From NCBI RefSeq assembly GCF_013128195.2, contig NZ_CP053452.2, forward strand, positions 1,178,001 through 1,242,000: a stretch of DNA of 64,000 nt. Reading direction: 5' to 3'. The notes under the pieces are model-generated. The model saw only the letters and a list, made by a program, of their open reading frames with translations, was not told the origin of the DNA and did not search any database. Of this stretch, positions 4,571 to 57,793 are shown in pieces; within the stretch, counting starts at the first letter, position 1, and each line of letters begins with the position of its first letter. This stretch comes from Frigoriglobus tundricola. GTDB lineage: Bacteria > Planctomycetota > Planctomycetia > Gemmatales > Gemmataceae. The translations under genes were made by a program, and so were the position numbers.

Positions 4571-4605
4571 TTCTCTCTGTGCGCTCTGTGGCTCTGTGAT
4601 TAATC
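4571..4605. repeat. CTCTGTG-type dispersed repeat
   Basis: A run of CTCTCTGTGCGCTCTGTGGCTCTGTG units lies between two convergent genes. The same motif family recurs around 21577-21688, 24750-24785 and 57570-57790. Confidence 0.5.
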
Positions 4606-17433: not shown

Positions 17434-19233
17434 TCACTTCACCGGCTTCAACACGATCTGTCGGAGGTCCATCACGGCCGGGCCGGGTTTGGTCTTCGCC
17501 TTCACACTCATCGTGTAGCGCCCGGCCTTTTCGATCTTCAGAGTGCCGACATCTCGGGCCTCGAACGTCTGAAACCCGCCCGTATCTTTTACCGTGAACG
17601 TCAGCTTCTCGTCACCGACCGCGAGTTCCACCTCCGCGCCGCCGCTCCCCTTCCCACAACCTTGCAGCACCTCCACGGTGAACGTACCCCCCTTCTCGAC
17701 CGTGAAATCGAAGGTCGCGGAATCGTCCTTGTTCACCCAATACCCGAGCGTGTTCTTGTGCGGCAGCGGCTCAAACCGGAGCATGGAGCCCTGCACGAGA
17801 GCGGTCCGGGCGTGCATCGTGATGACGCCGTCTTTGTTCTGCGGGTTGGGTTTGTAGTCGGGGTTGGGCGTCGGCATCTTCGCGCCGACCTCGTTTCGCC
17901 ACGTGGCGAGTTTCGCAGCGAGTTCTTTCACAACGTCCGGTTTCTCAGCGGCGAGGTTTCGACCTTCGGAGATGTCGCGCTTTACGTCAAAGAGTTCGCG
18001 CCGGCCGTCCTCGTAGAACTCGATAAGCTTGTAGTCCTTGAACCGCACTGCGCCGCCCGGCCGGGAGCCCTGGTTCGCGTAGTGCGGGTAGTGCCAGTAG
18101 ATCGCGCGTTCCTTGACATCCCCGTCATCGGAAGAACGCAGGATCGAGTCGCCGTCGGTGTGGTGAACATTTTTCTGCGGTATACCGGCCGCGTCCATAA
18201 TCGTCGGATAAAAGTCGATGCTGCACGCGACACGGTCGGTCGTACTTCCCGCCTTGATCCGACCGGGCCATTTCATGACACACGGCGCGCGGATACCGCC
18301 TTCGTAGAGGTAGCCCTTTCCTTCGCGCAGCGGGGCGTTGCTGGTCGGGGCGAACGGCATCCCCTCCAGTGTCGCGAGGCCGCCGTTATCGCTGGTGAAG
18401 ATCACGAGCGTGTTGTTGGTCAGTTTCAGGTCGTCGAGTTTCTTCAGCACGCGCCCGACGCTCGCGTCCATGCTCTCGACCATCGCGGCGTAGGCCGGGT
18501 TGCTCTGACGCCCGTGTGTCGGCGTCACTTTGTATTTGTCGATGAGCGCTTGCGGAGCTTTGAGCGGCGTGTGGACCGCATAGTGAGGCAGGTACAGGAA
18601 GAACGGCTTGCTCTTGTTCGTCTCGATGAACCGCTCGGCTTCCGTGGTGAGCCGGTCGGTGAGGTATTCACCGTCCTCGGCCTTTTCGAGCCCCGGCATC
18701 GCGCCGGACTTGTTCACGAACGGCGCGAAGTAACTGCGTGCCGTTCCGGTTTCGTCACCGGCAACGTTCACTTCGAACCCGAACCGCGTCGGCTCGAACC
18801 CTTTTCCCCCCAGGTGCCATTTCCCGATGAGTGCGGTGGCGTAGCCGTTCGTCTGAAGCGCCTTGGCGATGGTGATTTCTTCGAGCGGCAGTTCGTTCCG
18901 GATTTCGGGTCGCTTCAGCCGCTGATCGGGCGAGTCCTTGCGACCGGGAATCCAGTCGGTGACGTTCATGCGCTGCGGGTAGCGGCCCGTGAGGATGCTG
19001 GCCCGCGTCGGCGAGCACACCGGGCACGCGGCGTAGAAGTCGGTGAAGCGGACGCCCGCCTTCGCCATCTGGTCGATGTTCGGCGTCTTGTAGAAGGTGC
19101 TGCCATAACAGCCGAGGTCGCGCTGGCCGAGGTCGTCGATCACGATGAGGACGACGTTGGGCTTGTCGGCCGAGAAGCCGGTTTCACTACAGAGGCAGAG
19201 AGAACACAATGAAAGGCAGAAGGCACGAAACAC
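17434..19233 (-). CDS. Secreted type I sulfatase
   Basis: The frame is open to 19503, but that would overrun the upstream lipoprotein gene. The GTG at 19233 gives 599 residues starting with a signal peptide (VFRAFCLSLCSLCLCSETGF). The core is a classical sulfatase: PNVVLIVIDDLG supplies metal-binding Asp33/Asp34. C73-S-P-T-R77 is the CxPxR motif whose Cys becomes formylglycine in active enzymes, followed by ILTGRYPQR. GKWHLGG and FFLYLPHYAVHTPL are further family landmarks. The enzyme should remove sulfate from sulfated glycans or similar esters outside the cytoplasm; substrate is unknown. The last 130 residues form an extra beta domain. The signal-peptide codons resemble the dispersed CTCTCTGC repeat. 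Sulfatase abundance is a planctomycete trait. Confidence 0.85.
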   Translation of the reverse strand: MFRAFCLSLCSLCLCSETGFSADKPNVVLIVIDDLGQRDLGCYGSTFYKTPNIDQMAKAGVRFTDFYAACPVCSPTRASILTGRYPQRMNVTDWIPGRKDSPDQRLKRPEIRNELPLEEITIAKALQTNGYATALIGKWHLGGKGFEPTRFGFEVNVAGDETGTARSYFAPFVNKSGAMPGLEKAEDGEYLTDRLTTEAERFIETNKSKPFFLYLPHYAVHTPLKAPQALIDKYKVTPTHGRQSNPAYAAMVESMDASVGRVLKKLDDLKLTNNTLVIFTSDNGGLATLEGMPFAPTSNAPLREGKGYLYEGGIRAPCVMKWPGRIKAGSTTDRVACSIDFYPTIMDAAGIPQKNVHHTDGDSILRSSDDGDVKERAIYWHYPHYANQGSRPGGAVRFKDYKLIEFYEDGRRELFDVKRDISEGRNLAAEKPDVVKELAAKLATWRNEVGAKMPTPNPDYKPNPQNKDGVITMHARTALVQGSMLRFEPLPHKNTLGYWVNKDDSATFDFTVEKGGTFTVEVLQGCGKGSGGAEVELAVGDEKLTFTVKDTGGFQTFEARDVGTLKIEKAGRYTMSVKAKTKPGPAVMDLRQIVLKPVK

Positions 19234-20257: not shown

Positions 20258-21565
20258 ATGAATCTGCTGTCCCGTTGCCTCGGCTCTCCTCTGAACCGTC
20301 GCAACTTCCTGCACGTCGGGGCGATCGGGGCGCTCGGCCTCACCCTCGACCAGTACATGCGGCTCCAGGCCGCCGAACCGGCCGACAAGAAGAAGCCCAA
20401 AGCGGAAGCGTGCATCCACATCTTCATGCCGGGCGGCCAGGCCCACCAGGAGAGTTGGGACCCGAAGCCGTTCGCCCCGGTCGAGTACCGCGGCCAGATG
20501 GGCACGGTGAAGACGAAGATCGAGGGCGAGGTGTTCAACGAGTGCCTGGTCAAGACGGCCGCCGTCGCGGACCAGATCACCGTGTGTCGGGCGATGACGC
20601 ACGGCGAGGCCGCCCACGAGCGCGGCACCCACAACATGTTCACCGGCTACCGCCCCAGCCCCGCCCTCAAGTTCCCCAGCCTGGGTAGCGTCGTCAGCCA
20701 CGAACTCGGCGTGCGGAACAATCTGCCCCCTTACGTGGCCGTGCCCACCATGCCCGCCCAGGAGGCCGGTAGCGGTTATCTGTCCAGCAGCTACGCCCCG
20801 TTCAGCCTCGGCAGCGACCCGGCCAACGGCGGGTTCCGCGTGCAGGACCTCGCGCTGCCCGGGAACGTCACCCCGGACCGCTTCGCCACCCGGCGGACCA
20901 TGCTCGACGCCGTGAACGCCCACTTCGCCGGTAAGGAGAAGTCGGACAACCTCGACGCAATGGACACCTTCTACCAGCGGGCGTACGGACTCATCAGCAG
21001 CGAGAAGGCCCGCGAGGCGTTCGACATCAACAAGGAAGACGCCAAGCTCCGCGACGAGTACGGCCGCAACGCCGCCGGCCAGCGGATGCTGATGGCCCGC
21101 CGGTTGGTGGAGAGCGGCGTCCGGTTCGTCACCATGACCTACGGCGGCTGGGACCTCCACGGCGGCATCGTGGACGGCACCAAGAGCCAACTCCCGCAGT
21201 TCGACCAGGCGTTCGCCACACTGGTCACCGACCTCAAGCGGCGCGGGCTGTTCGACAGCACCCTGATCATGGTGTCCAGCGAGTTCGGCCGCACGCCGAA
21301 GATCAACGCCACCGCCGGCCGCGACCACTGGCCCAAGGTGTTCAGCGTGGTGCTCGCCGGCGGCGGCATCAAGAAGGGCTTCATCTACGGCAAGTCCGAC
21401 TCGACCGCCAGCGAGCCCGACGAGGACGGGCTGACGGTGGAGGACCTGGCGCACACCGTCTACCACTGCCTCGGCATCGACGCGGACAAGAAGCTGATGT
21501 CGCCCGGCGACCGCCCCATCGACATCGTCCGCGAGGGCAAGACCCGCAAGGAACTGGTGGCGTAA
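20258..21565 (+). CDS. DUF1501 secreted protein (sulfatase-fold relative)
   Basis: This 435-residue protein starts at the ATG at 20258, preceded by CGACAGGAGTCC. The leader PLNRRNFLHVGAIGALGLTL is twin-arginine-like, so export in folded form is likely. The body matches DUF1501: HIFMPGGQAHQESWDPKP, MTHGEAAHERGTHNMFTGYRP, TYGGWDLHGG, SSEFGRTPKIN and GRDHWPKVFSVVLAGGGI. The family is related to alkaline phosphatase/sulfatase folds, and conserved His/Asp residues suggest a metal site, but no reaction is established. It is the first gene of a run continuing with a PPC-domain protein, a DUF1549/1553 protein and a heme-WD40 protein, all exported. Confidence 0.85.
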   Translation: MNLLSRCLGSPLNRRNFLHVGAIGALGLTLDQYMRLQAAEPADKKKPKAEACIHIFMPGGQAHQESWDPKPFAPVEYRGQMGTVKTKIEGEVFNECLVKTAAVADQITVCRAMTHGEAAHERGTHNMFTGYRPSPALKFPSLGSVVSHELGVRNNLPPYVAVPTMPAQEAGSGYLSSSYAPFSLGSDPANGGFRVQDLALPGNVTPDRFATRRTMLDAVNAHFAGKEKSDNLDAMDTFYQRAYGLISSEKAREAFDINKEDAKLRDEYGRNAAGQRMLMARRLVESGVRFVTMTYGGWDLHGGIVDGTKSQLPQFDQAFATLVTDLKRRGLFDSTLIMVSSEFGRTPKINATAGRDHWPKVFSVVLAGGGIKKGFIYGKSDSTASEPDEDGLTVEDLAHTVYHCLGIDADKKLMSPGDRPIDIVREGKTRKELVA

Positions 21566-21576
21566 GGCGAAGGGGG

Positions 21577-21688
21577 TTCACCGCAGAGACCGCGGAGAAC
21601 GCAGAGAAAAGACACCGACAGGAGTTTCACCACTATGCTCTTCCGCCTCGTGTTCTCTCTCTGCGGTCTTTGTGGTCTCTGCGGTGAA
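21577..21688 (+). repeat. Inverted dispersed repeat enclosing a start codon
   Basis: The left arm (21577-21609, TTCACCGCAGAGACC...) and right arm (about 21653-21688, ...GGTCTCTGCGGTGAA) are largely complementary. The loop contains AGGAG (21620-21624) and the ATG at 21635. The right arm encodes part of the signal peptide of the PPC protein. In mRNA this could fold into a leader hairpin. Confidence 0.6.
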
Positions 21689-24124
21689 ATCCTCGCGGCA
21701 TCGCCCTCGCTCGGCGGCATCCAGCCGCGCGGCGCCCAGCGCGGCACCGAGGTCGCCCTCACCTTCCAGGGCGGGCGGCTCGCCGACGCTCAGGAAGTGC
21801 TCGTCTATTACCCCGGTATCGCGGTCAAGAAGACGGAAGTCGTCAACGACGCCACCCTGAAAGTCACGGTCGCCATTAGCCCGGACTGTCGGCTCGGGGA
21901 ACACGCCTTCCGCGTCCGCACCGCGACCGGCGTGTCCGACCTGCGCACGTTCTGGGTCGGGGCGCTGCCGGTGGTCGAAGAGGTGGAGCCGAACAGCGAG
22001 TTCGACAAACCGCAGCCGGTCCCGCTCAACGTCACCGTCCACGGCGTCGTGCAGAACGAGGACGTCGATTACTACGTCGTCGAGTGCAAGAAGGGCCAGC
22101 GCCTGTCGGTCGAGATCGAGGCCATGCGCCTCGGCGTCACGTTCTTCGACCCCTACGTCGCCATCCTCGACAGCAAGCGGTTCGAACTGGCTACCGGCGA
22201 CGACTCCCCGCTGACCGGCCAGGACGGCGGGTGCTCCGTCGTCATCCCGGCCGATGGGAAGTACATCGTTCAGGTCCGCGAGAGCGCCTACGGCGGTAAC
22301 GGCGCGTGCCAGTACCGGTTGCACGTCGGGAACTTCCCGCGGCCCACGGCCGTCGTCCCCGCCGGCGGCAGGCCGAACGAAGAGCTGGAGGTCACCTTCC
22401 TCGGCGACCCGACCGGGCCGATCAAGCAGAAAGTCAAGCTGCCCGCAACGGGAGACGACCACTACCGGCTCCACTGCCAGACGCCCGAAGGCGTTCACCC
22501 CGCCGGGTTCCCGTTCCGCATCGTGAACGTCCCGAACACCATCGCGAGCGGCACGAACGTGAGTGTTGCGACCGCGACCGCCGGCGCCGCTCCGGGCGCG
22601 TTCAACGGCGTGGTCGCGAAACCCGGTGAATCCAGCTACTTCAAGTTCACCGCCAAGAAGGGCGAGACCTACGACATCCACTGCTACGCCCGCCGCCTGG
22701 GGTCGCCGCTCGACCCGGTCCTCTTCCTCGGCAACGCGGCCGGCGCCGCGATCGTCGGCAACGACGACGCCATCGGCCCGGACAGCTACTTCCGCTCCAC
22801 GATCCCCGCCGACGGCGAGTACACGCTTTGGGTTCACGACCACCTGAAGAAGGGCGGTCCGGACTACTTCTACCGCATCGAAGTCACGCCGATTCAGCCG
22901 CGTGTCGATGCGACCATTCCGAAAGTGGACGGCAACAACCCCGCGAACCAGGAGCGCCAGACCGTTACCGTCCCCCGGGGCGGGCGGGCCGCGTCGCTCG
23001 TGATCGCCAACCGCGCCGATTTCGGCGGGCCGCTCGTGATGGGCTTCGAGAAACTGCCCGCTGGCGTCACGCTGACCGCGGAGACGATGGAGCCGGGTCT
23101 GAACGTCGTTCCTGTGGTGTTCGAGGCGAAGCCGGACGCGCCCGCCGCGGGACACCTGAGCGCGATCACCGCGACGCACACCGATCCGATGGCCCCGATC
23201 CCATCGAAGACGACCCTCGATGCGGCCTTCGCCATCAACCAGCCGGGCCAGACGGTCTACTCGCGCCACGTGTTCGATCGCACCGCGGTCGTGGTCTCCG
23301 AAGCGGCCCCGTACTCGATCAAGGTGATTGAACCGAAGGTGCCGCTCGTGCAGAACGGGTCGGCCAACCTGCGGGTGGTCGCGAAGCGGGCCGAGGGCTT
23401 CAAGGGCGCGATCACCGTGTTCCCGCTCTGGACCCCGCCGGGCATGGGCATTCAGGGGTCCGCGGTCATCCCCGAGGGGCAGACCGAAACCCTCCTGCCG
23501 ATGAACGCGGCCCCGAACGCCGCGGCGCGGAAGTGGAAGACGGCCGTGACCGCCGTGGCCGACGCCGGCAAGGGACCGGTGTGGACGTCCAGCCAGCTCT
23601 TCGCGCTGGAGGTGGCGGCCCCGTTCGTCACGCTCACGATGGAACGCCCCGCCGTCGAGCAGGGCAAGGACACGCAACTGTTCTGCAAGGTCGCCGTGGC
23701 CACGCCGTTCGAGGGCAAAGCCAAGGTGGCGCTGATCGGCCTCCCGGCGAAGACGACGACGCAGGTGATCGAGATCACAAAGGACACGAAGGAGTTCGCG
23801 TTCCCGATCGTCGCGGACAAGACGAGCCCGGTCGGCCAGCACAACGTGTTCGCGCAAGTCATCATCGACCGCGGCGGCGAACAGATCGCCGGCAACACCG
23901 GCGGCACGCAGCTCCGCATCGACGTGCCGCTCCCGCCAAAGGTGGCCGTCGCGACCCCGACGCCCGCCCCGATGACGCCGAAACCGGCGACGCCCACTCC
24001 GCCGACCCCACCGAAGCGCCTCACGCGGCTCGAACAGCTCCGGCTCGAAGCCGAGGAGCGCGAGAAGGCCGCAGCCGCCGGCGGGCAGCCCGCACCCAAG
24101 AAGGAAGAGCCGAAGAAGCCGTGA
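21635..24124 (+). CDS. Secreted PPC-domain protein
   Basis: The ATG at 21635 follows CAGGAGTTT and encodes 829 residues. The leader LFRLVFSLCGLCGLCGE is a Cys-rich hydrophobic signal peptide encoded inside a dispersed repeat. Residues 24-105 resemble an IPT/TIG-like Ig fold (SPSLGGIQPRGAQRGTEVAL). Two PPC-type (bacterial pre-peptidase C-terminal) domains follow, at about 115-240 (VEEVEPNSEFDKPQPVPLNV, DVDYYVVECKKGQRLSVEIE) and 335-445 (SSYFKFTAKKGETYDIHCYA). The centre is beta-sandwich material and the last 65 residues are Pro/Lys/Glu-rich. PPC domains are usually non-catalytic modules on exported enzymes; here no catalytic domain is visible. It lies 69 bp after DUF1501 and is probably in the same operon. 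Confidence 0.8.
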   Translation: MLFRLVFSLCGLCGLCGEILAASPSLGGIQPRGAQRGTEVALTFQGGRLADAQEVLVYYPGIAVKKTEVVNDATLKVTVAISPDCRLGEHAFRVRTATGVSDLRTFWVGALPVVEEVEPNSEFDKPQPVPLNVTVHGVVQNEDVDYYVVECKKGQRLSVEIEAMRLGVTFFDPYVAILDSKRFELATGDDSPLTGQDGGCSVVIPADGKYIVQVRESAYGGNGACQYRLHVGNFPRPTAVVPAGGRPNEELEVTFLGDPTGPIKQKVKLPATGDDHYRLHCQTPEGVHPAGFPFRIVNVPNTIASGTNVSVATATAGAAPGAFNGVVAKPGESSYFKFTAKKGETYDIHCYARRLGSPLDPVLFLGNAAGAAIVGNDDAIGPDSYFRSTIPADGEYTLWVHDHLKKGGPDYFYRIEVTPIQPRVDATIPKVDGNNPANQERQTVTVPRGGRAASLVIANRADFGGPLVMGFEKLPAGVTLTAETMEPGLNVVPVVFEAKPDAPAAGHLSAITATHTDPMAPIPSKTTLDAAFAINQPGQTVYSRHVFDRTAVVVSEAAPYSIKVIEPKVPLVQNGSANLRVVAKRAEGFKGAITVFPLWTPPGMGIQGSAVIPEGQTETLLPMNAAPNAAARKWKTAVTAVADAGKGPVWTSSQLFALEVAAPFVTLTMERPAVEQGKDTQLFCKVAVATPFEGKAKVALIGLPAKTTTQVIEITKDTKEFAFPIVADKTSPVGQHNVFAQVIIDRGGEQIAGNTGGTQLRIDVPLPPKVAVATPTPAPMTPKPATPTPPTPPKRLTRLEQLRLEAEEREKAAAAGGQPAPKKEEPKKP

Positions 24125-24712: not shown

Positions 24713-27142
24713 ATGAGGCTTTCTGACATGCGCCTTGCCTCCCTGCTGTCTCTCTGCGTCCTCGGCGGTCTCTGCGGTGAATCACCCGCCCAGACCATCG
24801 CCGTGTACCCGCCGGACATCAACCTCGAAACGGCCCGCGACCGCCAATCGTTCGTCGTGCAGCTCACCCAGCCCGACGGCCTCACCCGCGACGTCACCGC
24901 CCAGGCGCAGGTGACCTTCGCCGACCCGACGCTCGTGAAGCTCGACGCGCACTACGTCCGGCCCGTCGCGGACGGCGCCACCGAGATGAGCGTGACCTTC
25001 GGCGGGCAGACCGTCAAGATCCCGGTGAAGGTGACGAAGGCGAAGGAGGACCGCGCGATCTCCTTCAAGCAGGACGTGATGCCGGTCTTCATGCGGACCG
25101 GGTGCAACGTCGGCGGGTGCCACGGCGCGGCCCGCGGTAAGGACGGCTTCCGGCTGTCGCTGTTCGGCTTCGACCCCGAGGGCGACCACTTCCGCCTCAC
25201 CCGCGAACTCAACGGCCGCCGCGTGAACCTCGCGCTGCCCGGCGAGAGCCTGCTCGTCGAGAAGGCGCTCGGAAAAGTGCCACATACCGGCGGGGCGAAG
25301 ATTAAGGAAGGCGACGAGTACCACCAGACGCTCCTCCGCTGGCTCGAGGCCGATGCGCCCCTGGACCCGCCCACGGTCGCACTACCGGTGAGCATGGAAG
25401 TGTTCCCGCCCGGCGCGGTCCTCGACGGCAAGGGCGAGAAGCAGCGCCTCGTGGTGCGGGCGAAGTACAGCGACGGCACCGACCGCGACGTGACCAGCCT
25501 CGCGCTCTTCCTCACGAACAACGAGACCGCCGCCAAAATCGACGGCGACGGCACCGTGACGGCCGGCGACCGCGGCGAGGCGTTCGTCATGGCCCGGTTC
25601 CACACGTTCACCATCGGCGTGCCGTTCATCACGCTGCCGAAGGGCCTGAAGTTCGCCTGGTCGAACCCGCCCGAAACGAACTACATCGACACGCTGGTCC
25701 ACAACAAACTGAAGAAGCTCCGCATCGAGCCGAGCGGCGTGTGCGACGACGCGACCTTCGTGCGCCGCGTGTACCTCGACATCATCGGCGCGCTGCCCAC
25801 GCCCGAGGAGTACGCCCGGTTCATGGTGTCCACGCTGCCCACGAAGCGCGAGCACCTCGTGGACGAGTTGCTCGACCGCAAGGAGTTCGCGGAGCTGTGG
25901 GTGCTGAAGTGGGCGGAGCTGTTGCAGATCCGCTCGTCCAACGACGTCAGCTATAAGGCGATGCTGCTGTACTACGGCTGGCTGCAAGAGAAAATCGCCA
26001 ACAACGTCCCGACCGACGAGTGGGTGCGCGAGCTGCTCGGGGCCAACGGCGGCACGTTCAAGAACCCGGCGACCAACTACTACCAGCTCGAGCGCGACGT
26101 CCTCAAGGTGACGGAGAACGTGGCCCAGGTGTTCATGGGCATGCGCATCCAGTGCGCCCAGTGCCACAACCACCCGTTCGACCGCTGGACGATGGACGAC
26201 TACTACTCGTTCGCCTCGTTCTTCACCCAGATCGGCCGCAAGGGCACCGACGACGCCCGCGAGCTGGTCGTGTTCAACAGTGGCGGCGGCGAGGTGAACC
26301 ACCCGGTCCACAAGCGGCCGATGCCGCCCAAGTTCCTCGGCGGCACCGCCGCCGCGGACGTGGCCGGCAAGGACCGCCGCGTGGTGGTCGCGACCTGGCT
26401 CGCCAGCGCCGACAACCCGTACTTCGCCAAGAACCTCTCGAACATCGTCTGGGGCCACTTCTTCGGCCAGGGCATCATCAACGAGATCGACGACGTGCGG
26501 ATCTCCAACCCGGCGAGCAACCAGGAGCTGCTCGACGAGCTAGGCAAGCGGTTCACCGGCTACAAGTACGACTTCAAGAAGCTCGTCCGCGACATCTGTA
26601 CTTCGCAGACGTACCAGCGCTCGACGCAGCCCACCAAGACGAACGAGAGCGACACGCGGAACTTCGCCCGCGGGCCGATCCGCCGCATCCGAGCGGAGAC
26701 CATGCTCGACATTATCACTCAGGTGACGGACACGAAGAACAAGTTCCAGGGCCTCCCGCTCGGCGCCCGCGCGGTGCAGATCGCCGACGGCGGCGTGAGC
26801 ACGTACTTCCTCACCACGTTCGGCCGCCCGACCCGTGAAACGGTCTGCTCGTGCGAAGTGCGCCTCGAACCGACGCTGTCGCAAAGCCTCCACCTGCTCA
26901 ACGGCGGGACAGTGGAACCGAAGATCGCGCAGGGGAACCTCGTGGGCAAGATGCTCCAGGAGAAGAAGACCCCGGCGCAGATCATCGAGCAGATGTACGT
27001 CCGGTGCCTGAGCCGCGCGCCGAAGCTGGAGGAACTCAAGGCGCTCCTCGCCGCCGTGGACGCGGCCAAGGACAAGAAGCAGGCGCTGGAAGACGTGTTC
27101 TGGGCGATCATGAACTCGCGCGAGTTCATGTTCAACCACTGA
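24713..27142 (+). CDS. DUF1549/DUF1553 cytochrome-type protein, copy 1
   Basis: The frame starts at the ATG at 24713; a second ATG at 24728 has GAGG nine bases upstream and may be the real start. The product is 809 residues, with a leader LASLLSLCVLGGLCGE encoded by a dispersed repeat. Ig-like BIG2-type segments lie at about 25-110 and 225-320. A CX4CH site (CNVGGCHG, near residue 130) follows the first. DUF1549 (about 330-540) carries CAQCHNHPFDRW near 480, a canonical CxxCH heme site. DUF1553 follows to the end, closing with SREFMFNH. The family is abundant in planctomycetes, is exported and has no proven role; two heme sites suggest electron transfer. The downstream gene is a heme-WD40 protein. 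Confidence 0.85.
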   Translation: MRLSDMRLASLLSLCVLGGLCGESPAQTIAVYPPDINLETARDRQSFVVQLTQPDGLTRDVTAQAQVTFADPTLVKLDAHYVRPVADGATEMSVTFGGQTVKIPVKVTKAKEDRAISFKQDVMPVFMRTGCNVGGCHGAARGKDGFRLSLFGFDPEGDHFRLTRELNGRRVNLALPGESLLVEKALGKVPHTGGAKIKEGDEYHQTLLRWLEADAPLDPPTVALPVSMEVFPPGAVLDGKGEKQRLVVRAKYSDGTDRDVTSLALFLTNNETAAKIDGDGTVTAGDRGEAFVMARFHTFTIGVPFITLPKGLKFAWSNPPETNYIDTLVHNKLKKLRIEPSGVCDDATFVRRVYLDIIGALPTPEEYARFMVSTLPTKREHLVDELLDRKEFAELWVLKWAELLQIRSSNDVSYKAMLLYYGWLQEKIANNVPTDEWVRELLGANGGTFKNPATNYYQLERDVLKVTENVAQVFMGMRIQCAQCHNHPFDRWTMDDYYSFASFFTQIGRKGTDDARELVVFNSGGGEVNHPVHKRPMPPKFLGGTAAADVAGKDRRVVVATWLASADNPYFAKNLSNIVWGHFFGQGIINEIDDVRISNPASNQELLDELGKRFTGYKYDFKKLVRDICTSQTYQRSTQPTKTNESDTRNFARGPIRRIRAETMLDIITQVTDTKNKFQGLPLGARAVQIADGGVSTYFLTTFGRPTRETVCSCEVRLEPTLSQSLHLLNGGTVEPKIAQGNLVGKMLQEKKTPAQIIEQMYVRCLSRAPKLEELKALLAAVDAAKDKKQALEDVFWAIMNSREFMFNH

Positions 27143-57551: not shown

Positions 57552-57559
57552 AACCGGCG

Positions 57560-57790
57560 CCGGGCCGCAGAGGACAGAGGACAGAGGACAGAAAGAGGAC
57601 AGAAACTGGACTAACCACAGAGTCACAGAGAGAAAGGCAACACCGAGAAGACCAGAACCGAATTGTTCCGTTCTTATCTCGGCCTTTGTTCTTTCTCTGT
57701 GCTCTCTGTGCTCTCTGTGACTCTGTGGCTAGTCCTCTTTCTGTACTCTTTCTGTCCTCTGTCCTCTGTCCTCTGGCTCTCTGTCCTCTG
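57560..57790. terminator. Large imperfect palindrome between convergent genes
   Basis: The left half (GAGGACAGAGGACAGAGGAC, then CCACAGAGTCACAGAGAGAA) is mirrored by the right half (TCTCTGTGCTCTCTGTGACT, then CTGTCCTCTGTCCTCTGTCC). The centre lies around 57650. It is built from the dispersed CACAGAG and GAGGACA repeats and probably ends both the pilT and the sigma transcripts. Confidence 0.6.
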
Positions 57791-57793
57791 CGG

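What the first reader, a model, noticed from the sequence alone, without database searches (positions are those of the whole stretch)
21635..21688. Signal peptides encoded by a dispersed repeat
The signal-peptide codons of the PPC protein (21635), and the equivalent part of the DUF1549/1553 gene at 24713 (about 24746-24785), consist of the dispersed TCTCTCTGCGGTCT-type repeat. The sulfatase (minus, 19233 to about 19170) has a weaker match. The same repeat occurs without coding at 4571-4605 and 57560-57790. The encoded leaders share the odd Cys-rich pattern SLC.LCGLCGE. This suggests that a mobile or palindromic repeat has been recruited as export signals, giving the genome a ready supply of signal peptides.
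Basis: partly seen in the sequence, partly recalled or inferred. Interest (0 to 1): 0.65.

Follow-up and report, generated by a model that had tools for sequence, protein, structure and literature searches.

The report
Palindrome arms as signal-peptide coding sequence
In a genus of the planctomycete family Gemmataceae, a dispersed hairpin-forming DNA repeat that normally sits between genes has, at a handful of genes for secreted proteins, run over the gene start so that one of its arms now encodes the export signal, and the repeat differs from species to species at the same gene.

Summary
The PPC gene (ATG 21635) starts inside an inverted repeat (arms 21577-21615 and 21650-21688). The ribosome-binding site and ATG lie in the loop, and the pyrimidine-rich right arm encodes the hydrophobic core SLCGLCGLCGE. 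The neighbouring DUF1549 gene and a sulfatase carry right-arm-only versions. The arm sequence is a true dispersed repeat: 20 own-genome hits, 0 for the reversed-pattern control. Across the genus the same architecture recurs at orthologues: 13 of 16 for this PPC gene, 11 of 14 for a PPC paralogue and about 10 of 15 for a PQQ protein. The palindrome type differs between species. One species with a near-identical mature protein (G010 versus G008) has a wholly different palindrome and leader. Family-level orthologues have ordinary leaders. Arms enter N-termini only of proteins with signal peptides (5 families, 0 cytosolic); at cytosolic cysS they stop 5-48 nt before the start. A general 'ready supply' is not supported: in a 1.66 Mb sample of the own genome only these window genes qualify. 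Best reading: tolerated co-option, because the 3' arm encodes hydrophobic residues and leaders tolerate change. A single-gene precedent exists (Yersinia RU-2/YPO1552).

The parts
21577..21615 (+). Left (purine-rich) arm of the inverted repeat, noncoding, between the DUF1501 stop and the PPC start
   Evidence: 39 nt, 82% complementary to 21650-21688
21616..21649 (+). Loop: AGGAG (21620-21624), ATG (21635-21637) and the first codons of the PPC gene
   Evidence: sequence; RNA fold (-72.2 kcal/mol, z -8.6)
21650..21688 (+). Right (pyrimidine-rich) arm; encodes VFSLCGLCGLCGE, the hydrophobic part of the signal peptide
   Evidence: repeat hits
21635..21700 (+). Predicted signal peptide MLFRLVFSLCGLCGLCGEILAA before mature SPSLGGIQPRG (cleavage site inferred; the mature start is conserved in orthologues)
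21635..24124 (+). PPC-domain protein gene (PF04151)
   Evidence: relatives in all 59 genomes searched
20258..21565 (+). Upstream DUF1501 gene (PF07394); the element begins 12 nt after its stop
24749..24781 (+). Arm-only copy (no left arm) encoding SLCVLGGLCGE in the leader of the DUF1549/1553 gene
24713..27142 (+). DUF1549/DUF1553 gene; the true start is probably the ATG at 24728, present in all 15 orthologues
19182..19215 (-). Degenerate arm-only copy encoding LSLCSLCLCSE in the sulfatase leader (probable GTG start 19233-19231)
   Evidence: orthologues G007, G003, G001 similar
57568..57775 (.). Composite intergenic palindrome of the same class (65-nt arms 57568-57632 and 57711-57775) filling the gap between two convergent stop codons
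4571..4605 (+). Degenerate single arm, intergenic

Best explanation
The leaders are the 3' (pyrimidine-rich) arms of iterated intergenic palindromes: 30-45-nt arms of imperfect 8-9-nt units such as CTCTGCGGT, around unrelated loops. Shown: in this genus such palindromes occupy gaps between genes. At the cytosolic gene cysS they end 5-48 nt before the start codon. At several secreted-protein genes they are displaced downstream, so that the ATG falls in the loop and the right arm replaces the hydrophobic and cleavage-site part of the signal peptide, ending 5-18 nt before the mature codons in the PPC-paralogue and PQQ genes. Shown: the arm type differs between species at the same orthologous gene while both arms stay complementary. 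Inferred: purifying selection removes arms that enter cytosolic proteins. A signal peptide needs only hydrophobicity, which pyrimidine-rich DNA often encodes (Leu, Cys, Val, Phe, Ser), so arms can spread into, and be replaced within, leader codons without loss of export. After the left arm is lost or displaced, the right arm persists as leader sequence (24749-24781 and the sulfatase). How arms are copied in inverted, matching pairs is not known; inverted templated copying at replication forks or an unidentified enzyme are both possible.
For: Inverted repeat around the ATG. Dispersed repeat with no control hits. PPC-A orthologues: 7 of 16 with both arms and 6 right-arm-only, in at least five arm types; the tree puts G010 next to G008 with almost identical mature protein but a wholly different palindrome and leader. 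PPC-B 11 of 14, PQQ about 10 of 15, with 34-45-nt near-perfect arms of different sequence in G003 and G007. At cysS all 9 detected inverted repeats lie outside the gene, of several types. Arm inside the N-terminus: 5 families, all secreted, versus 0 cytosolic (Fisher p about 0.001-0.003 with families counted by hand). Right-arm frames hydrophobic (26 of 136 with mean KD >1) versus left-arm frames (0 of 125), p=8e-27. A leader in another frame (SAFSAFSAV) in an alpha/beta hydrolase suggests that hydrophobicity, not the LCG sequence, is what is kept. The rare codons match the repeat.
Against: Export is not measured; no signal-peptide predictor was available. By gene family, N-terminal overlap is not above C-terminal overlap. 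DUF1549 leaders are degenerate and no orthologue keeps a left arm, so their origin from the repeat is weaker. Orthologous hits are not independent. G008 keeps a left arm that no longer matches its right arm well, so arms do not always change together. Many genus genomes are fragmented, probably metagenome assemblies, although G000, G002, G008 and G013 are 1-3 contigs.
Confidence: 0.75

Rival explanations
1. One reading: the repeat is an actively recruited, adaptive reservoir of ready-made signal peptides that moves into genes and confers export.
For: Recurs in several secreted families and species; wholesale leader replacement in G010.
Against: Rare in the own genome; distant orthologues already have ordinary leaders, so export was not gained; loops with RBS and ATG are alignable among PQQ orthologues with and without the left arm, so no unit insertion into a leaderless gene was seen; no N-terminal enrichment by family.
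Confidence: 0.12
2. The palindrome is kept at these starts as an mRNA hairpin that controls translation or transcript stability (RBS and AUG held in the loop of a 30-45-bp stem); the coding of a leader is incidental.
For: Very stable predicted fold, -72.2 kcal/mol, z -8.6; both arms stay complementary while their sequence changes between species.
Against: About half of the arm-bearing orthologues lack the left arm; the same arm complementarity is seen at wholly intergenic copies, so it is not specific to starts; no Rfam match.
Confidence: 0.15
3. The resemblance is coincidence: signal peptides are low-complexity and hydrophobic, and T/C-rich codons happen to look like the repeat.
For: Leu and Cys codons CTC and TGC are common in this genome; DUF1549 leaders are degenerate.
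Against: Exact 21-mers shared with intergenic palindromes, no reversed-control hits; matching left arm upstream of the ATG; rare codons TCT, GTT and GGT.
Confidence: 0.04

Closest known systems
Yersinia palindromic sequence YPAL/RU-2, locus YPO1552 (Delihas 2007, PMC2759123, PMC2229807)
   Same: [quoted passage not shown] related proteins have signal peptides of other origin.
   Different: One gene and one 168-bp element that encodes the first 30 residues. Here seven families, many species, start codon in the loop, only the right arm coding, and arm types that replace one another at the same gene.
Rickettsia palindromic elements (RPE)
   Same: Dispersed palindromes found both between genes and in frame inside protein-coding genes.
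   Different: RPEs are insertions of about 105-146 bp into protein genes of many kinds (PMC2229807); here mainly leaders are affected, loops are not conserved and only one arm is translated.
REP/BIME and MITE-type intergenic repeats
   Same: Small dispersed inverted repeats between genes, many copies per genome.
   Different: No conserved loop or unit found here; several unrelated arm families share one architecture; no transposase link was shown.

Membership tests
RPE-like protein-coding palindromic element | Dispersed palindrome present both in intergenic and in coding positions | tested here: met
RPE-like protein-coding palindromic element | A conserved unit inserted in frame into otherwise conserved protein genes | tested here: not met
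   Loops mostly unrelated; the arm overlies existing leader positions rather than adding an internal insertion
YPAL/RU-2-type signal-peptide-forming repeat | Repeat DNA encodes part of a signal peptide | tested here: met
   Sequence overlap and hydrophobicity; no signal-peptide predictor and no export assay available
YPAL/RU-2-type signal-peptide-forming repeat | Sequence homology to the RU-2 element | not tested
   RU-2 was not compared
MITE | Terminal inverted repeats flanking an internal sequence shared among copies | tested here: not met
   Arms cluster, loops mostly do not
MITE | Target-site duplication and a parent transposase | not tested
   not examined
REP with RAYT transposase | Y1_Tnp (PF01797) gene in the genome | tested here: met
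   7 matches in the own genome
REP with RAYT transposase | RAYT genes flanked by this repeat | not tested
   positions listed, flanks not read
Type I signal peptide | Charged n-region, hydrophobic core, small residues before the mature start | tested here: met
   MLFR / LVFSLCGLCGLCG / ILAA before a conserved mature start; maximum KD 1.9-3.3 in arm leaders; read by eye
Lipoprotein signal peptide | Lipobox with G, A or S before Cys | tested here: not met
   Cys is preceded by Leu in the SLC/GLC repeats (read by eye)

The most novel reading that the evidence does not exclude
Iterated palindromes behave as interchangeable signal-peptide cassettes: a copying process rewrites both arms at a fixed gene start, so that closely related species carry unrelated leaders, each with its own matching upstream arm, on nearly identical secreted proteins. 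The hairpin and the leader are then maintained together and leader turnover is driven by a repeat-copying mechanism rather than by point mutation.
Probability: 0.25. Interest if true: 0.75.

Novelty: new variant of a known kind. Interest (0 to 1): 0.58.

Why it matters
It gives a natural, repeated case in which noncoding repeat DNA becomes and re-becomes a functional protein segment, with orthologues before and after the change at the same site. That makes two questions testable: how freely signal-peptide sequence can be replaced, and how paired arms of intergenic palindromes are copied together. The same arm 21-mer occurs in more than ten phyla, so the copying process behind it may be widespread.

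Tried and rejected
A first look at orthologue leaders misread minus-strand loci and was redone. Unit transposition: rejected as the simple model because loops rarely match and loops with RBS and ATG are alignable with and without the left arm. Enrichment of N-terminal over C-terminal overlap: significant by hits (p=0.001; one groEL hit there is a false positive) but not by gene family (p=0.29), so not claimed. Use as a leader in other phyla: of 119 loci with the exact 21-mer, the clear arm-in-leader cases are PPC and PQQ loci like those of this genus. Known RNA family: none. Literature search for the repeat sequence as text: one unrelated Bacteroides paper. Concerted evolution numbers are biased, because elements were chosen for having matching arms; only the cases of wholly different type are used as evidence.

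Full report
WHAT IS THERE. The window lies in a 9.86 Mb genome of a Gemmataceae-type planctomycete (relatives; the family name rests on record titles such as 'Gemmataceae bacterium' and was not tested separately). At 21577-21688 there is an inverted repeat, TTCACCGCAGAGACCGCGGAGAACGCAGAGAAAAGACAC ... GTGTTCTCTCTCTGCGGTCTTTGTGGTCTCTGCGGTGAA, arms 39 nt, 82% complementary, 34 nt apart. The left arm starts 12 nt after the DUF1501 stop. AGGAG and the ATG (21635) of the PPC gene are in the loop. The right arm is codons 6-18 of the gene, giving MLFRLVFSLCGLCGLCGEILAA before the conserved mature start SPSLGGIQPRGAQRG. The next gene, DUF1549/1553, carries an arm-only copy (24749-24781) encoding SLCVLGGLCGE, and the sulfatase a degenerate one (minus 19215-19182) encoding LSLCSLCLCSE. 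Pfam confirms PPC, DUF1549/1553, sulfatase and DUF1501.

IS IT MORE THAN CHANCE. TCTCTGYGGTCTCTGYGGT with up to 2 mismatches has 20 hits in the own genome and none for the reversed pattern; with up to 3 mismatches 50 hits against 3. In 19 genomes of the genus the 21-mer TCTCTGYGNTCTCTGYGGTGA (up to 1 mismatch) hits 15 genomes and its control none. Most copies are intergenic palindromes with the two arms roughly 50-110 nt apart, start to start. The leaders use TCT, GTT and GGT, which are 2%, 8% and 9% of their codon families in this genome.

OWN-GENOME CONTEXT. In 1.66 Mb (four 400-kb blocks plus the window) 206 long inverted repeats were found; shuffled sequence gives none at score 18 or more. 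181 are wholly intergenic. They fall into many arm families, while loops rarely match. Only the window's own repeat clearly straddles a start. A search of 1,253 called gene starts with all arms gave, after reading the hits by eye, the PPC and DUF1549 genes as the arm-in-leader cases; the other strong hits have their likely start downstream of the arm. So in this genome the recruitment is rare.

ORTHOLOGUES. The PPC protein has relatives in all 59 genomes searched. In 16 species of the genus 7 have an inverted repeat around the start: G000, G013 and G008 (CTCTGCG or CTTTGCG types), G011 (TTTGTGCCTTTGTGG), G002 (a 43-bp perfect repeat, GCACAAAAAGCACAAAA), G010 (GGTGAAGGGGTGAA) and G009 (GCAAAGCCGCAAAG). 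Six have only the right arm (SLCVLCGLCGE and similar). Three (G012, G017, G018) and the family- and order-level orthologues read have ordinary leaders. In the tree of mature proteins G013, G008 and G010 are almost identical, yet G010 has a different palindrome and leader from just after the upstream stop codon to the mature start. The same picture holds for a PPC paralogue (4 of 14 with both arms, 7 right-arm-only) and a PQQ protein (5 of 15 with both arms, about 5 arm-only), again with different arm types in different species, for example the perfect 34-bp repeat of G007. In those two families the right arm ends 5-18 nt before the mature codons. DUF1549 leaders resemble the arm but no orthologue keeps a left arm. 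Sulfatase orthologues G007, G003 and G001 carry arm-like leaders, the others mostly not. Two further single-species cases are a beta-lactamase-like protein (L070) and an alpha/beta hydrolase read in another frame, MRTLFKLACFVSAFSAFSAVKSAEP (L127); these two functions were assigned by eye.

THE CONTRAST WITH CYTOSOLIC GENES. At cysS, palindromes of several types were detected in 9 of 19 genomes, all ending 5-48 nt before the start codon. Among genus-wide arm hits next to a same-strand gene start, 17 calls were inside the reading frame; one (groEL, L134) is false because its true start lies downstream, and the remaining 16 fall in five families (two of them PPC paralogues that cluster together), all with export leaders. 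The families with the arm outside are mostly cytosolic (pepT, cysS, groEL, gltX and others; names by eye), with about five or six secreted. A Fisher test on hand-counted families gives 0.001 to 0.003. By family, overlap with gene starts is not above overlap with gene ends (5 of 32 versus 3 of 41, p=0.29). Stop codons facing an arm cluster 1-30 nt outside it.

WHY IT CAN WORK. In purine/pyrimidine-asymmetric palindromes the left arm is purine-rich and the right arm pyrimidine-rich, so a gene that starts in the loop tends to read a hydrophobic stretch: right-arm frames have mean hydropathy 0.15 with 26 of 136 above 1.0, left-arm frames -1.47 with 0 of 125. The transcript folds into a strong hairpin (-72.2 kcal/mol, z -8.6). 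A control role is possible but not needed, since many orthologues lack the left arm.

DISTRIBUTION AND PRECEDENT. The exact 21-mer CTCTGCGTTCTCTGCGGTGAA occurs in at least 119 contigs from more than ten phyla including archaea (capped scan), but clear use as a leader was seen only at PPC and PQQ loci like those of this genus. It is patchy in the class: 26 of 297 genomes (related 21-mer pattern). The nearest published case is Yersinia RU-2 forming part of the predicted signal peptide of YPO1552 (PMC2759123, PMC2229807); RPE in Rickettsia are the nearest class of coding palindromes. In the passages read, neither shows replacement of one palindrome type by another at orthologous leaders.

LIMITS. 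No signal-peptide predictor or export data; gene starts were called by a simple codon-score method; orthologous hits are not independent; many genus genomes are fragmented; 17% of the own genome was sampled for the unbiased count; several counts (families secreted or not, arm-only leaders) were made by eye.

Noticed in passing
L312-L430: The exact 21-mer CTCTGCGTTCTCTGCGGTGAA, about half with a palindromic partner (61 of 119), occurs in Acidobacteria, Armatimonadetes, Chloroflexi, Planctomycetes, Desulfuromonas, Nitrospirae, Mariprofundus, Geothrix, Methanophagales and others; no name for it was found.
   Followed up: partly
window 57552-57793: A composite palindrome fills the whole gap between two convergent stop codons; it joins GGACAGAGGACAG-type outer arms with CACAGAG-type inner arms, as if palindromes nest.
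   Followed up: partly
own genome, 1.66 Mb sample: About 1,100 long inverted repeats per genome are implied, in many unrelated arm families with mostly unique loops; the process that copies arms in matching inverted pairs is unexplained.
   Followed up: partly
genus loci L051-L180: Stop codons of genes facing an arm lie outside it, mostly 1-30 nt away, in 50 of 54 cases, which would suit a terminator role for these hairpins.
   Followed up: no
G000 and genus: More than 50 matches to the DUF1549/1553 protein per genome.
   Followed up: no
L022 and L027 upstream regions: Where the left arm is missing, the gap upstream of the PPC gene is filled by another palindromic repeat (CCAGGGGTGGAGCGCAGCGCAACCCCTGG type).
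   Followed up: no
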